From: Kangiella sp. TOML190
GTDB taxonomy: Bacteria; Pseudomonadota; Gammaproteobacteria; Enterobacterales; Kangiellaceae
Length of the DNA stretch: 64,000 nt
Reading direction: 5' to 3'
Assembly: GCF_023706045.1 (NCBI RefSeq)
Contig: NZ_BQYL01000001.1
Location: 372,001 to 436,000, forward strand
The notes under the pieces are model-generated. The model ran no database searches. It saw nothing but the letters and a program-made list of their open reading frames with translations, and was not told where the DNA came from. The first letter of the stretch is position 1. Each line of letters begins with the position of its first letter. Position numbers and translations under genes: made by a program. Shown here piece after piece: positions 20,276 to 34,077 of the stretch.

Positions 20276-20611
20276 CTAGAGTCCGCCCATCTGACCGCCG
20301 GAATAACCGCCTGACATAGGACCTGGTCCCATACCTTGGCCGCCAGAGCCTTGATCATCCCCTTGGCCACCCTGCCCGCCATTGTCGCCATTATTGTATT
20401 GGCTACGAACATTGCGAATTGGAACCACGGTGGACACTGCATGCTTATAGACCATTTGATTGACTGTATTTTTCAATAAAATCACAAATTGATCAAATGA
20501 TTCGATTTGCCCCTGAAGCTTAATACCATTGACCAAATAAATGGAAACTGGCACTTTCTCACGTCTTAACGCGTTTAAAAAAGGGTCTTGTAGTGATTGC
20601 CCCTTTGACAT
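20276..20611 (-). CDS. hfq: RNA chaperone Hfq
   Basis: Hexameric Sm-like protein that pairs small RNAs with mRNAs. The Sm core (residues 1-70) is canonical: [40 protein letters not shown] and [10 protein letters not shown]. The tail, about residues 75-111, is Gly/Gln/Asp-rich and low complexity, of the disordered type found in gammaproteobacteria. Its presence supports Hfq-dependent sRNA control in this organism (see the candidate at 30697). Confidence 0.97.
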
Positions 20612-30074: not shown

Positions 30075-30638
30075 ATGAAGCAAACACCGAATAGTCCTGC
30101 AAAGCTCCATTCTCGACAAACAAAAATAAAACCGAAAAAGCCGATCTGGCGTCATCTGCTCGAGATTGCACTGCTATTGGTGGTGGTTTTTGGGATCCTT
30201 TGGTGGCAAGAGCGACACCTTCTCAGCCGTGATGATAAGCCTCTTGCTCCCTCCCAACAGCTGATTAGCCTTGACGAAAAGCGCTATCAAATTCCAGCCG
30301 CGGGACAAAAGCAGTTGCTCTACTTCTTCGCTCCTTGGTGCAAAATTTGCCGTTTTTCCATTGGTAATATTGAAGCACAAAAGCCAGCGCTGCTTAAAAA
30401 GGGATTTCAGGTACGTTATGTCGCGTTAGATTGGCAAAACAAGACTGAAGTCGCTGCTTTTGCCAAAGAACAAAAACTTACCTTCCCCGTCCTGATGGGC
30501 ACTCTTGAAACCATGCAACAATACCAAGTGCAAGGTTTTCCAACTTATTATTTAGTGGACGAACAAGGCCGGATCAGCGCGGGGTCTCAAGGCTATTCCA
30601 CCAGTTTGGGGATCTGGCTTCGTAGCCTGAATAATTAG
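30075..30638 (+). CDS. Membrane-anchored TlpA/ResA-like thioredoxin
   Basis: The 187-residue protein has a basic N-terminus, one transmembrane anchor (ALLLVVVFGILWW, about 33-46) and a periplasmic thioredoxin fold. The redox centre is FFAPWCKICRFS (CxxC) and the cis-proline loop is GFPTYYLVDEQGR. It probably keeps some periplasmic thiols reduced, for example in cytochrome c or copper-centre assembly, but no partner is adjacent. The gene starts immediately after the alkyltransferase-like gene (TAG-ATG), so the two are cotranscribed. Confidence 0.88.
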   Translation: MKQTPNSPAKLHSRQTKIKPKKPIWRHLLEIALLLVVVFGILWWQERHLLSRDDKPLAPSQQLISLDEKRYQIPAAGQKQLLYFFAPWCKICRFSIGNIEAQKPALLKKGFQVRYVALDWQNKTEVAAFAKEQKLTFPVLMGTLETMQQYQVQGFPTYYLVDEQGRISAGSQGYSTSLGIWLRSLNN

Positions 30639-30646
30639 ACTTAAAT

Positions 30647-30690
30647 AATAACGATTATCATTTGCATTTAAAGAGGCGTTCTCTTATACT
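30647..30690 (+). promoter_or_regulatory. Sigma70 promoter overlapped by a Fur box
   Basis: -35 TTGCAT (30662-30667) and -10 TATACT (30685-30690) are spaced by 17 bases. A Fur-box-like sequence at 30647-30665 overlaps the -35; by hand it matches 14 of 19 positions of the GATAATGATAATCATTATC consensus. This is the layout of an iron-repressed promoter. It lies between the thioredoxin gene and a rho-independent terminator, with no protein gene downstream on this strand. Confidence 0.65.
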
Positions 30691-30696
30691 TATTTT

Positions 30697-30796
30697 AGTG
30701 CTTGCTGCAAGCTAGTTTCTAATAACTATAATGAGCCCACAGGTCTCTTCACGCTAATCAACCCCGCCGGTTGCTAACTGCGAGGGGCTTTTTTTT
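30697..30796 (+). ncRNA. Candidate Fur-regulated, Hfq-type small RNA
   Basis: A transcript of about 100 nt is expected from the promoter at 30662-30690. It would begin near 30697 and contain a 5' hairpin (GCTTG-CTG-CAAGC, 30700-30712), an A/U-rich unpaired middle (TAATAACTATAATGAG) and a terminator hairpin (CCCC at 30762 pairing with GGGG at 30784) ending in eight Ts. No ORF of note lies in it. The layout is that of RyhB/PrrF-type iron-sparing RNAs, but I see no sequence match to a known family. A long 3' UTR of the thioredoxin gene is the alternative. Confidence 0.5.
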
Positions 30797-30814: not shown

Positions 30815-31156
30815 TTAGTGTAAATGGCTCAGATGAGAAATTTCATCAAATTTTCGCAATGCATCCAGCAATGGCTTCACCAAACTCAGTTGTTCTTTAT
30901 AGACTTCTTCAGCGATCGGTAAAATTTGCGCGGGCCCTGGGGGCAGCTGACGAAGCCTTATCGCCTCATTCATTCGCGGCAAAAAGATATACTGTAACCA
31001 ATTTTCAAACGGCATCGTATCCACCGCGAAGGGCATACTCGATTGCATCGCCTCATGACTTGGCGGGGTCTTGCTCCATAGATTGGTAATCTTTAGTGCT
31101 TGCTCGATAGTGGCAAGGTTATCTTGGTATTTGCTAAACCAATCAATTTGGCTCAT
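30815..31156 (-). CDS. YqcC-like protein (DUF446)
   Basis: A 113-residue helical cytosolic protein matching YqcC: LWSKTPPSHEAMQSSMPFAV, DTMPFENWLQYIFLPRM and RQLPPGPAQILPIAEE. The function is unknown, but members often sit near the pseudouridine synthase truC, which is not seen here. It overlaps the DUF2889 reading frame by 4 bases, suggesting coupling to that now interrupted gene. Confidence 0.85.
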   Translation of the reverse strand: MSQIDWFSKYQDNLATIEQALKITNLWSKTPPSHEAMQSSMPFAVDTMPFENWLQYIFLPRMNEAIRLRQLPPGPAQILPIAEEVYKEQLSLVKPLLDALRKFDEISHLSHLH

Positions 31157-31710
31157 TTAGGGTCCTTTTGTTGTTTAAATTGCTCTGGGGCGAGAACTTC
31201 AATCACTTCACCATCTTCGGCAAAGCCGTAGCAAGAATTTATCAAGCCCTCAGTGATGGGAAAAGTACCATCTTCGGCAAAAGTCAGATAAGGATAAATC
31301 GCTTGTATCGCTGTAGTTGCCATTGGCCTTAGTAACTCGACCAAATGCGAACAACCCAATACTCCGCCAATTCTCTGCTTGGCTTGCTGAGTCCAGCCGC
31401 TTTTAATCTTCAAGCCTTTCAGGCTTTTAATATTACTTTCAATATCCGGACAACGTTTAAAAGGCGTTACCAATAAGCGCGCCTAGGCTTCCTGAATCAC
31501 CAGTTCATTATTTAAAGTCAAGCGCAGCCAAATATCATGCACCAAATCACCAACGGGCAAGATGCCACGTTGCAAAGTGGGAAAAGGATAGGCTTTGCTA
31601 TCAATCAGGTTCGCTTCGATATCCCACAGACCGTCTTCGCGCAAATAAGCGTTGGGACGAATGCGTCTTTGATGAATTAACTTACGCGGTTTAGGTTTGG
31701 ATAGACTCAT
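31153..31710 (-). pseudogene. DUF2889 gene interrupted by one in-frame TAG
   Basis: Two adjacent frames together make one DUF2889 protein. Residues 1-75 (AYLREDGLWDIEANLIDSKA, VHDIWLRLTLNNELVIQEA) end at a TAG at 31483-31485. The same frame then continues ARLLVTPFKRCPDI, LKGLKIKSGW, GGVLGCSHLVELL, the usual C-terminal half. No shift of frame is needed: the fault is a single stop where relatives have an ordinary residue. The downstream half has only a TTG as a possible restart. It is a nonsense mutation, a sequencing error or readthrough; about 186 codons in all. Confidence 0.8.
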
Positions 31711-31815: not shown

Positions 31816-34005
31816 CTAGAAGTTAAACTTAACACCAAGCCGCGCATGGCGATCTTTAACCGGACGCGCGCCATAAGGTTGGCGACCAGCGATACCATCT
31901 TCTTCAAACAGATTGTCGATGGTTGCAAACAAAGTGGTGCTGTCGTTTAGCTGATATTCACCTGACAGATCCACCACCAGTAGCGAGTCCGTTTTCAAGA
32001 AAGCTTCGCGCTCGCAAGCTGCTTTGGTGCAAACTTCATCCACATACTGCACCGCTGTGTAAAGATTCCACTGCCCATTATCGTAACCGAAGCTAAATTG
32101 TGCTTGGTGCTCTGGAATGTAAGGTATGGCATCACCAGACTGCACATCGCCCCAGACATCACTGTCGAAACTGCGCTCAAACTCAGAGTCAGTATAAGTA
32201 TAGGCAAAACGTGCTGGCCAGTTTTTGGCAAATTCGCCTTGCACACTTAACTCCACACCTTGAGTTTTGGCTTTACCACCATTGGACTTGTCACCTTGGT
32301 TTTCTAAATCACAAGCGTTTGACAAGGTACAGTCGCCGAGAATATTGTCATAATCGTTTACGAATACGATCAATTCGCTCGAATATTGACTGCCAGCAAA
32401 GCGTACACCAAATTCATAATTCCAGCTTTCTTCCGCTTCGTCGCCAGGATTGTTACCCGGAGGAGCAAAGCCTTTATTTACGCCTGCCAATAATGACGTG
32501 GTTTCGTTAACAGACCACAGTGCGCCAATTCCCGGTAGCAGTTCAGAAACACTGTTTTCACGCACACTAGCAGCGATACTGCGATCTGGGGTACTCCAGT
32601 TTTTGCGTTTAAGATCGACATCTTCAAAACGTAAACCTGGGGTTAAAATCCAATCGCCAAAACTGATGGTATCTTGTAAATAATAGGATTGGGCATCAGC
32701 CGAGGCAATTCGATTTCCCGCCTCTCCCCAAACGCCGGGATCTGCAACCGTAACTAGGCCGTTGGCTTGGGTATAGTCACCATCGCGTTGAAAACGATCT
32801 TCTTCGTCTTCATGCAAGCGCGCGCCAAACGCTAATTCATGCTGCGTTTGCCCGACCATAAACTCATATCCAAAGTCCAACTGCACGCCGCGACTTAAAT
32901 ATTCGCGGTTGTTATCACGAATGGTTAATGCGCCGATTGCAGAGTCGCCACCATCTAAGATCGCTTGGTAACCTGCAGCATTAGCATCGTTAGTATTTAG
33001 GCTGTTAATAACGTCGGATAACGACTCGCCATTGAGTTTGGCCAATTTAAACCAGTTACGTTTTGTTTCATTGCGATAAGCGGTAGTTTTAGCGTCAAAA
33101 CCATTGTTAAAGTCCACATAGTAAGTCGCCATAATTTGATCGTGTTCACCGTCAAAATTATCCAGCTGAGTCACGCTGTATTGGCGGTAGGGGTTAGCGG
33201 CATAATCCGCATCCGAAAGGCCCAAATAGGTTTGATCCGAATCTTCATCCGAGTGCTGCAGCTTTAAATCAAACTGCTGGTAAATGCTAGCATCCAAATC
33301 GCTGTTAAAACGCAATTTAGCCACATAATCGTCTTTATCAAAACCGGTATCATTATTGGTGCCAGTAATGGTTTTAAAACCGTCATATTGATGTTTATTG
33401 GCTTCGATTAAATAACCAAAATTATCACTAGAATCACTGTAATAACCATAAAGTTGCTGATCGCCATCTTGCCCTAAGCCCAATTTTATTTGCCCTTGCG
33501 CCTTATCGGCTATTGGTCGAGTTAGGAAATTAATCGCGCCGCCAACGGTAAAAGGACCGTACTGGATCGCCGCAGGACCTTTCAGCACTTCAATTCCGGT
33601 AATTCTATCAAAAGTCGGAAAGTAGTAAGCTGAAGATGCCGCATAAGGTGCGGGTGCGATCAGAACCCCATCTTCCATCAAGCTAATCCGGCCAGAACGC
33701 CCAGTTCCAGTACCTCTTAGACCAATATTCGGTCTAAGTCCTAGGCCGTCCTCTTGTTGAATATAAACCCCGGGCAATTGCTGTAAAGCTTTTGTGGCGT
33801 CACTGTATTTCATTTCATCTAACTGCTGCGTATCCACTACCAATGCCGAGCCAGGAATATTTTTAGCAGCGTGTTTACTGCCGATAATAGTGACCGTATT
33901 AGCAGAATCCTCATCGTTATGGATATCTTCGGCTAAAAGAGAAGCTGAAGTCATGGCTGTCAAAACCGCCAAAGCAGTTAAAGACATAGTCGCTTTTGTG
34001 TTCAT
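31816..34005 (-). CDS. TonB-dependent outer-membrane receptor (FecA-like)
   Basis: A 729-residue siderophore or ferric-chelate receptor. It has a signal peptide of about 25 residues and a plug domain with ATKALQQLPGVYIQQEDG, GLRGTGTGRSGRISLMEDGV and VLKGPAAIQYGPFTVGGAIN. A 22-strand barrel ends in a C-terminal LGVKFNF (aromatic last residue). The plug most resembles the ferric-citrate (FecA) group, but there is no fecIR signalling pair and no obvious N-terminal signalling domain. A Fur box lies just upstream, so iron repression is likely. Confidence 0.9.
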   Translation of the reverse strand: MNTKATMSLTALAVLTAMTSASLLAEDIHNDEDSANTVTIIGSKHAAKNIPGSALVVDTQQLDEMKYSDATKALQQLPGVYIQQEDGLGLRPNIGLRGTGTGRSGRISLMEDGVLIAPAPYAASSAYYFPTFDRITGIEVLKGPAAIQYGPFTVGGAINFLTRPIADKAQGQIKLGLGQDGDQQLYGYYSDSSDNFGYLIEANKHQYDGFKTITGTNNDTGFDKDDYVAKLRFNSDLDASIYQQFDLKLQHSDEDSDQTYLGLSDADYAANPYRQYSVTQLDNFDGEHDQIMATYYVDFNNGFDAKTTAYRNETKRNWFKLAKLNGESLSDVINSLNTNDANAAGYQAILDGGDSAIGALTIRDNNREYLSRGVQLDFGYEFMVGQTQHELAFGARLHEDEEDRFQRDGDYTQANGLVTVADPGVWGEAGNRIASADAQSYYLQDTISFGDWILTPGLRFEDVDLKRKNWSTPDRSIAASVRENSVSELLPGIGALWSVNETTSLLAGVNKGFAPPGNNPGDEAEESWNYEFGVRFAGSQYSSELIVFVNDYDNILGDCTLSNACDLENQGDKSNGGKAKTQGVELSVQGEFAKNWPARFAYTYTDSEFERSFDSDVWGDVQSGDAIPYIPEHQAQFSFGYDNGQWNLYTAVQYVDEVCTKAACEREAFLKTDSLLVVDLSGEYQLNDSTTLFATIDNLFEEDGIAGRQPYGARPVKDRHARLGVKFNF

Positions 34006-34058
34006 GGGTTGCTCTTAATTCGTTTGTTATAAGGGACAAAAGAATTATAGATCTAAAT

Positions 34059-34077
34059 GATAATGATTATCAATAAG
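34059..34077 (-). promoter_or_regulatory. Fur box upstream of the TonB receptor
   Basis: GATAATGATTATCAATAAG matches the 19-bp Fur consensus at 15 of 19 positions by hand. It lies about 55-70 bases before the receptor start and next to the regA stop, so the receptor has its own iron-regulated promoter inside this gap. Confidence 0.85.

What the first reader, a model, noticed from the sequence alone, without database searches (positions are those of the whole stretch)
30647..30796. Unannotated Fur-repressed small RNA between a thioredoxin gene and yqcC
A near-ideal sigma70 promoter (TTGCAT, 17 bp, TATACT) is overlapped by a Fur box matching 14 of 19 positions, and a rho-independent terminator with eight Ts ends 100 bases later, with no protein in between. 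The predicted RNA has a 5' hairpin, an A/U-rich unpaired centre and a U-tailed terminator, the layout of Hfq-dependent iron-sparing RNAs such as RyhB and PrrF. I see no sequence identity with those, so it may be a new family. hfq is in the same window, and a Fur-boxed receptor lies 3 kb away.
Basis: partly seen in the sequence, partly recalled or inferred. Interest (0 to 1): 0.8.

Follow-up and report, generated by a model that had tools for sequence, protein, structure and literature searches.

The report
New Kangiella iron-sparing small RNA
The stretch looks like a real small-RNA gene of the marine bacterium Kangiella that is probably switched on when iron runs short and is predicted to silence iron-using enzymes by base pairing, doing the job of RyhB and PrrF without belonging to either family.

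Summary
Alone the site is weak: a 14/19 Fur box is expected about twice per 64 kb, the -35 matches 3/6, the terminator is imperfect. Comparison makes the case. A 13-nt core (TCTCTTCACGCTA) before a terminator is exact in 10 of 20 Kangiella genomes, and nowhere else in those 20. Eight copies have a Fur-box-like sequence over an identically spaced promoter; seven of these lie at another locus and predict a longer RNA. In two species the core lies in the 3'UTR of a heme-receptor gene with a similar Fur-type promoter. The core is exactly complementary to start regions of sodB (9-11 nt in 9 of 10), acnB (7-9 nt over the start codon in 9 of 10) and sdhC (7-10 nt in 10 of 10); in six genomes tested, 0 of 20,000 shuffled cores reached all three. 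Where the core's 3' end differs between clades, sodB differs to match. A blind scan of 746 start regions gave three matches of 9 nt or more: fumA, iscS and an artefact. No Rfam family fits. Expression and iron, Fur or Hfq dependence are untested.

The parts
30647..30667 (+). Fur-box-like operator overlapping the -35 element
   Evidence: 14/19 to the 19-bp consensus; the same Fur-box-over-TTGCAT arrangement in 7 other Kangiella sRNA copies and in the hmuR promoters of G004 and G013
30662..30690 (+). sigma70-type promoter TTGCAT-17-TATACT
   Evidence: TTGCAT-17-TATGAT with the same spacing in 7 of 7 group-A copies
30697..30796 (+). predicted sRNA, about 100 nt (start inferred as about 7 nt after the -10; not mapped)
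   Evidence: promoter to T-run; relatives
30719..30733 (+). A/U-rich stretch before the core, possible Hfq distal-face site (inference)
   Evidence: A-rich run in the 10 aligned copies
30738..30760 (+). conserved seed core CACAGGTCTCTTCACGCTAATCA, complementary to the start regions of sodB, acnB, sdhC, fumA and iscS
   Evidence: 13 nt identical in 10 of 10 copies; pairing
30762..30796 (+). rho-independent terminator, bulged G/C stem and eight T
   Evidence: G/C hairpins and T-runs at the same place in relatives
30815..31156 (-). yqcC (Pfam DUF446), convergent neighbour; marks the shared site with G004 and G013
20276..20611 (-). hfq, the expected RNA chaperone

Best explanation
It is a small-RNA gene of the iron-sparing kind. 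Inferred chain: with iron, Fe-Fur binds the operator over the -35 element and blocks transcription. Without iron, an RNA of about 100 nt is made, ends at the terminator, and is probably held by Hfq. Its core (5'-GGUCUCUUCACGCUAAUCA) pairs with start regions of mRNAs for iron enzymes: upstream of the Shine-Dalgarno of Fe-type sodB, across the GUG start of acnB, at the start and first codons of sdhC, and near the ribosome-binding sites of fumA and iscS. Translation is blocked and iron is saved for essential uses. Shown here by sequence: conserved core, promoter/operator arrangement and terminator, and complementarity well beyond chance for several iron genes. Inferred: transcription, Fur and iron control, Hfq, and repression. 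In two species the same core ends a heme-receptor mRNA with a Fur-type promoter, so it would be co-produced with heme uptake there.
For: Core found by DNA search in 9 of 19 other same-genus genomes; the 13-mer is exact in 10 of 20 genomes, once each, at this element. Exact 19-nt core in the GTDB contig collection: 5 stretches, all Kangiella. Fur-like box over the -35 with TTGCAT-17-TATRMT in 8 of 10 copies; a 20-genome scan of this pattern, which was drawn from these copies, gives 0-1 mismatches only at these 8. sodB: TATAGCGTGAA, 11 nt complementary to ..UUCACGCUAUA, in 6 of 7 group-A genomes (8 nt in G015); GATTAGCGT, 9 nt complementary to ACGCUAAUC, in 3 of 3 genomes with that core form. 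acnB 7-9 nt over the GTG start in 9 of 10. sdhC 10 nt in 4 and 8 nt in 3 of 7 group-A genomes, 7 nt in the other 3. 20,000 base-shuffled cores per genome, six of the ten genomes tested: in G010, 10, 161 and 20 reach the sodB, acnB and sdhC values and 0 all three; in the window genome 94, 377 and 1141, and 0 all three. Control start regions of the window genome: 1 of 389 with 9 nt or more, 3 of 746 in the larger sample that includes them: fumA, iscS and an ORF-start artefact inside infB. SodB is Fe-type by NCBIfam (G007 copy).
Against: No expression data. The window copy has a poor -35, a bulged terminator and an unremarkable fold, and its minimum-energy fold buries much of the core. 10 of 20 genomes lack a detectable copy (one, G002, is 55% complete and its sodB still has the 11-nt site). 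Among the other nine, G011 keeps the 9-nt sodB and 8-nt acnB sites, G016 and G017 the 8-nt acnB site, G008 7 nt in acnB, and the four clade-D genomes whose sdhC I could read keep 8 nt there, so parts of the complementarity need not depend on this RNA. G003, without the RNA, has a 10-nt match before acnB, by my reading upstream of the start rather than over it. The G004 acnB start site is broken and the G015 sodB site is 8 nt. In the window genome and G013 the three lengths are modest: 3 and 14 of 20,000 shuffles reach the same summed length. The sRNA/sodB co-change is one event between two clades. Blind hits of 9 nt or more in G010 and G001 are mostly not iron genes (1 of 6 is, a hemerythrin-domain protein). 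RNAduplex energy separates targets from controls poorly: 80 of 389 control regions reach the window genome's sodB value of -15.3.
Confidence: 0.85

Rival explanations
1. A conserved 3'UTR/terminator element of heme-receptor mRNAs with no trans function; the window's copy would be a relic left after the receptor gene was lost.
For: In G004 and G013 the core and terminator follow the heme-receptor stop codon and no own promoter is found; the window genome has no match to that receptor at E 1e-60 or better.
Against: Seven species have the core under its own Fur-type promoter at another locus; a relic would not be expected to keep 13 identical bases plus complementarity to sodB, acnB and fumA.
Confidence: 0.05
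2. A real Fur-controlled sRNA, but with different main targets; the iron-enzyme matches are partly fortuitous (for example coding conservation in sdhC and ribosome-binding-site composition).
For: The sdhC site lies in conserved codons and is also found in sRNA-less species; the acnB site persists in G011, G016 and G017, where no copy was found.
Against: sodB matches of 9-11 nt change together with the core's 3' end; shuffled cores rarely reach them (7-12 of 20,000 in the four group-A genomes tested; 94 and 222 in the window genome and G013); the blind scan picked fumA and iscS.
Confidence: 0.08
3. A distant, diverged member of the PrrF family sharing ancestry.
For: The best Rfam match is PrrF, end to end on the right strand (21.4 bits; 16.9 bits for the G004 copy); the PrrF consensus and the G004 copy share GCUAAUCAC.
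Against: Far below the 90-bit gathering score; a second PrrF match of 16.6 bits on the opposite strand shows how little such scores mean; the group-A copy from G010 does not list PrrF at E up to 5; the shared string could be convergence on the same targets.
Confidence: 0.12
4. Chance juxtaposition of Fur-like, promoter-like and terminator-like sequence.
For: The Fur match, promoter and fold taken singly are near chance level in this window.
Against: Conservation of the whole arrangement in other species.
Confidence: 0.02

Closest known systems
PrrF1/PrrF2 (Pseudomonas; Rfam RF00444)
   Same: Fur box over the promoter, unpaired core, rho-independent terminator; 9 shared core bases GCUAAUCAC with the G004 copy; sodB, sdh and acn are PrrF targets (recalled)
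   Different: 21.4 bits against a 90-bit threshold; not a tandem pair (recalled feature of prrF); different 5' part
RyhB (enterobacteria)
   Same: Target set sodB, acnB, sdhC, fumA, isc (RyhB targets recalled; one search is a paper listing only)
   Different: RyhB is not among the Rfam matches listed for the window region up to E 10
NrrF (Neisseria), HrrF (Pasteurellaceae), BrrF (Burkholderia)
   Same: Lineage-restricted Fur-controlled sRNAs; [quoted passage not shown]
   Different: Different lineages; no Rfam match to such families at threshold; BrrF known here only from listings and the start of its abstract
3'UTR-derived bacterial sRNAs (kind recalled; paper listing)
   Same: In G004 and G013 the core and terminator end a receptor mRNA and have no visible promoter
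   Different: In the window and group A the same core has its own Fur-type promoter

Membership tests
Fur-repressed iron-sparing sRNA (functional kind) | Fur operator overlapping the sRNA promoter | tested here: met
   By sequence in 8 of 10 copies; the other 2 lie behind a receptor gene whose promoter has the same pattern with 2 mismatches. Fur binding not tested
Fur-repressed iron-sparing sRNA (functional kind) | discrete non-coding transcript ending at an intrinsic terminator | tested here: inconclusive
   Hairpin plus T-run in 10 of 10 copies by reading, imperfect in the window; no conserved ORF; transcription not testable
Fur-repressed iron-sparing sRNA (functional kind) | antisense pairing with start regions of iron-enzyme mRNAs | tested here: met
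   Computational only: sodB, acnB, sdhC chosen beforehand; fumA and iscS from the blind scan
Fur-repressed iron-sparing sRNA (functional kind) | induction by iron starvation, Fur dependence | not testable with these tools
   needs RNA work
Fur-repressed iron-sparing sRNA (functional kind) | Hfq dependence | not testable with these tools
   hfq is present; per the passages read in PMC4144887, NrrF and HrrF do not need Hfq for stability
PrrF (RF00444) | score at or above the Rfam gathering threshold (90 bits) | tested here: not met
   21.4 bits; 16.9 bits for the G004 copy
RyhB, NrrF and other Rfam sRNA families | Rfam match at gathering threshold | tested here: not met
   Only two tRNAs in the whole window; no match at its gathering score
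3'UTR-derived sRNA | core and terminator in an mRNA 3'UTR without own promoter | tested here: inconclusive
   Met by position in G004 and G013; not met in the window and group A; processing not testable

The most novel reading that the evidence does not exclude
One iron-sparing RNA core has switched, within a single genus, between being the processed tail of a Fur-controlled heme-receptor mRNA and being a free-standing Fur-controlled sRNA gene at two different loci, while sodB changed with its 3' end. It would be a caught-in-the-act case of how RyhB-like regulators arise or move, and would tie iron sparing directly to heme uptake in the two 3'UTR species.
Probability: 0.4. Interest if true: 0.78.

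Novelty: new member of a known kind. Interest (0 to 1): 0.62.

Why it matters
RyhB-like regulators seem to have arisen repeatedly with unrelated sequences (recalled; HrrF is one example), so their origin is an open question. This family is small, target pairing is readable from sequence, the core changes together with its sodB site, and three genomic contexts survive in one genus. That makes origin and target co-evolution testable in marine bacteria of which several species are cultured, and it predicts part of the iron-sparing regulon of Kangiella.

Tried and rejected
PrrF/RyhB membership: rejected on Rfam scores. Conserved small peptide: the 8-codon ORF is not kept. Copies beyond the genus: covariance model R1 in 148 genomes of the order (Kangiella among them) gave, at E up to 0.1, two non-Kangiella matches at E 0.07 and 0.09, which do not resemble the core by eye. 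R1 was built from the ten copies, so its ten strong hits in the genus are by construction. sRNAs in the ten genomes without a copy: the weak R1 hits that I read, the Fur-type promoters that I read and an ACGCTMAY-plus-terminator pattern (13 loci read) gave nothing convincing; they included tRNA terminators, what look like coding stretches, and protein genes. Near-perfect targets: the reverse complement of the 13-mer with one mismatch gave 28 places against 33 for the reversed control pattern. Origin of the window promoter by deletion of hmuR: undecided, 36 of 72 bases identical to the hmuR promoters against 34-45 of 72 to group-A promoters. First prints of flanks used the wrong side for some loci and were redone. 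Fur-like boxes, 16 of 20 loci scanned crudely: no terminator matched my expression near the box; 9-10-nt core-like strings turned up elsewhere in 4 of the 16 and were not followed. The group-A 5' domain has 4 of 25 predicted pairs with a double change in 5 sequences, and 12 of 25 with at least one broken pair or gap: suggestive only, no control run. Limits of the control scans: ORFs under 100 aa and starts within 60 bases of a stretch end were dropped, and starts were picked by a simple rule. The sdhC start was not found in G012, and G002 had no sdhA match.

Full report
What is in the window. The window lies in a 2.45-Mb genome. Between a thioredoxin-like gene (30075-30638) and convergent yqcC (30815-31156, minus) lie a Fur-box match, a TTGCAT-17-TATACT promoter, about 100 nt without conserved coding capacity, and a terminator. 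Taken alone these elements are unconvincing: five 14+/19 Fur matches occur in 64 kb against 0-3 (mean 1.8) in ten simulations, the -35 is poor, and the fold is no better than shuffles.

Conservation. A DNA search of 41 genomes found the middle of the element in 9 of 19 other same-genus genomes. Reading those loci shows a core ending in TCTCTTCACGCTA, identical in 10 of 10, directly followed by a G/C hairpin and a run of seven or more T. The exact 13-mer occurs in 10 of 20 Kangiella genomes, once each, at this element. The exact 19-nt core in a collection of one genome for each of 84,980 species gave 5 stretches, all Kangiella; that scan did not return G005, G007 and G010, which carry it, so it is not exhaustive. 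Covariance model R1, built from the ten copies, found no convincing copy outside the genus in a sample of 148 genomes of the order.

Three settings. (A) In G001, G005, G007, G009, G010, G015 and G018 the element lies beside an AstE/aspartoacylase-like gene, with a pirin gene nearby on the other side in the two loci whose ORFs I listed (Pfam run on the G007 copies). It has a Fur-box-like sequence over TTGCAT-17-TATGAT and would give RNAs of 144-196 nt. Five of the seven share a 5' domain with a long helix. (B) In the window it has the same promoter arrangement beside yqcC. (C) In G004 and G013, also beside yqcC (with a DksA-like ORF between in G004, my reading of the sequence), the core and terminator follow the stop codon of a TonB-dependent receptor gene, which NCBIfam places in the heme/hemoglobin group (G004 copy; the G013 protein is 72% identical). 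No promoter is detected in front of the core there. The receptor's own promoter matches the Fur-type pattern with two mismatches. The window genome has no match to that receptor at E 1e-60 or better. The promoter-pattern scan of the 20 genomes, with a pattern drawn from these copies, gave 0-1 mismatches only at the eight sRNA promoters.

Targets chosen beforehand. sodB, sdhC and acnB were chosen as standard targets of RyhB and PrrF (recalled). sodB leaders of 6 of 7 group-A genomes contain TATAGCGTGAA, exactly complementary to 11 nt of their RNA; G015 has 8 nt. The window, G004 and G013, whose RNA reads ACGCTAATC instead of ACGCTATA, have GATTAGCGT, complementary to 9 nt. Own core beats the other clade's core at sodB in 9 of 10 genomes and ties in one; at acnB it is longer in 7 of 10, equal in 2 and shorter in G004. 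acnB has 7-9 nt over its GUG start in 9 of 10; the G004 start site is broken. sdhC has 10 nt (4 genomes) or 8 nt (3) in codons 4-7 in group A, and 7 nt in the other three. In 20,000 base-shuffled cores per genome, run for six of the ten genomes, none reached all three observed lengths at once; 0 reached the summed length in the four group-A genomes, 3 in the window genome and 14 in G013. In clade D without the RNA (G003, G006, G012, G014, G019) the sodB match is 5-7 nt and the acnB match 4-5 nt, except 9-10 nt in G003; the sdhC 8-mer is present in the four whose sdhC start I could read.

Blind controls. Of 389 start regions from the window and 20 stretches of its genome, one had a match of 9 nt or more: class I Fe-S fumarase, TGATTAGCG at -27. 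With 20 more stretches (746 regions in all) there were three: fumA; an IscS-type cysteine desulfurase (GTGAAGAGA at -14; 76% identical to E. coli IscS and behind an IscR-like reading frame); and a false ORF start inside infB. Ten further regions had 8 nt; by Pfam or my reading they are not iron genes. In G010, 2 of 329 and in G001, 4 of 334 reached 9 nt; one of these six is a hemerythrin-domain protein by Pfam, four are not iron genes by my reading, and one is unidentified. None of the 1409 controls reached 11 nt, the group-A sodB value; two reached 10 in G001, so sdhC (10) and acnB (9) alone are not extreme there. Hybridisation energy separated less well.

Interpretation. The simplest account is a Fur-repressed, iron-sparing antisense sRNA. 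The functional kind is known; the family has no match at threshold in Rfam 15. In a library of open papers, 'Kangiella' with 'small RNA' gave one unrelated paper (listing), and a Kangiella comparative-genomics paper contains neither 'sRNA' nor 'small RNA' in its main text (PMC6000758, term search and passages); I claim no wider absence from print. [quoted passage not shown] Distant kinship with PrrF is possible: the G004 core shares GCUAAUCAC with the PrrF consensus printed, but scores are far below threshold and convergence on the same targets would look alike.

Limits. No transcript, Fur binding or regulation is shown. Half of the sampled genus lacks the element; G011 keeps the sodB and acnB sites without it, which suggests recent loss or an unseen substitute. 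The sRNA/sodB co-change is a single event on one branch. Whether the 3'UTR form is processed into a functional RNA, and which setting is ancestral, cannot be decided here.

Noticed in passing
window, about 31153-31710 (-): The gene upstream of yqcC carries an in-frame TAG (reading ..VIQEA*ARLL..) where G013 and G004 have an intact frame of 185-190 aa; possible pseudogene or sequence error.
   Followed up: partly
window 34053-34077: Two overlapping 15/19 Fur-box matches in front of the TonB-dependent receptor 31816-34005 (-).
   Followed up: partly
L106, L110, L128, L130 near position 1500: A TTTGCATT..TATAGT Fur-type promoter stands before an ORF of about 390-410 aa, probably secreted, in several Kangiella; in G005, G006 and G019 it is 1-3 kb from sodB.
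   Followed up: partly
L176-L180 (sodB leaders of G012, G019, G006, G014, G003): In the clade without the RNA the sodB leader has its own conserved element ACAGTGAGCGTAAC; it may pair with a different, unidentified sRNA.
   Followed up: partly
L314:597-1331: A cysE-like gene (my reading; Pfam hexapeptide transferase) upstream of the iscR-iscS region has an 8-nt core match (ATTAGCGT) at -57; cysE is a recalled RyhB target.
   Followed up: no
L025-L029, 5' parts of the sRNAs: Five group-A RNAs carry an extra 5' domain with a conserved helix (TTCGCTG with CAGCGAA) of unknown role, absent from the window copy.
   Followed up: partly
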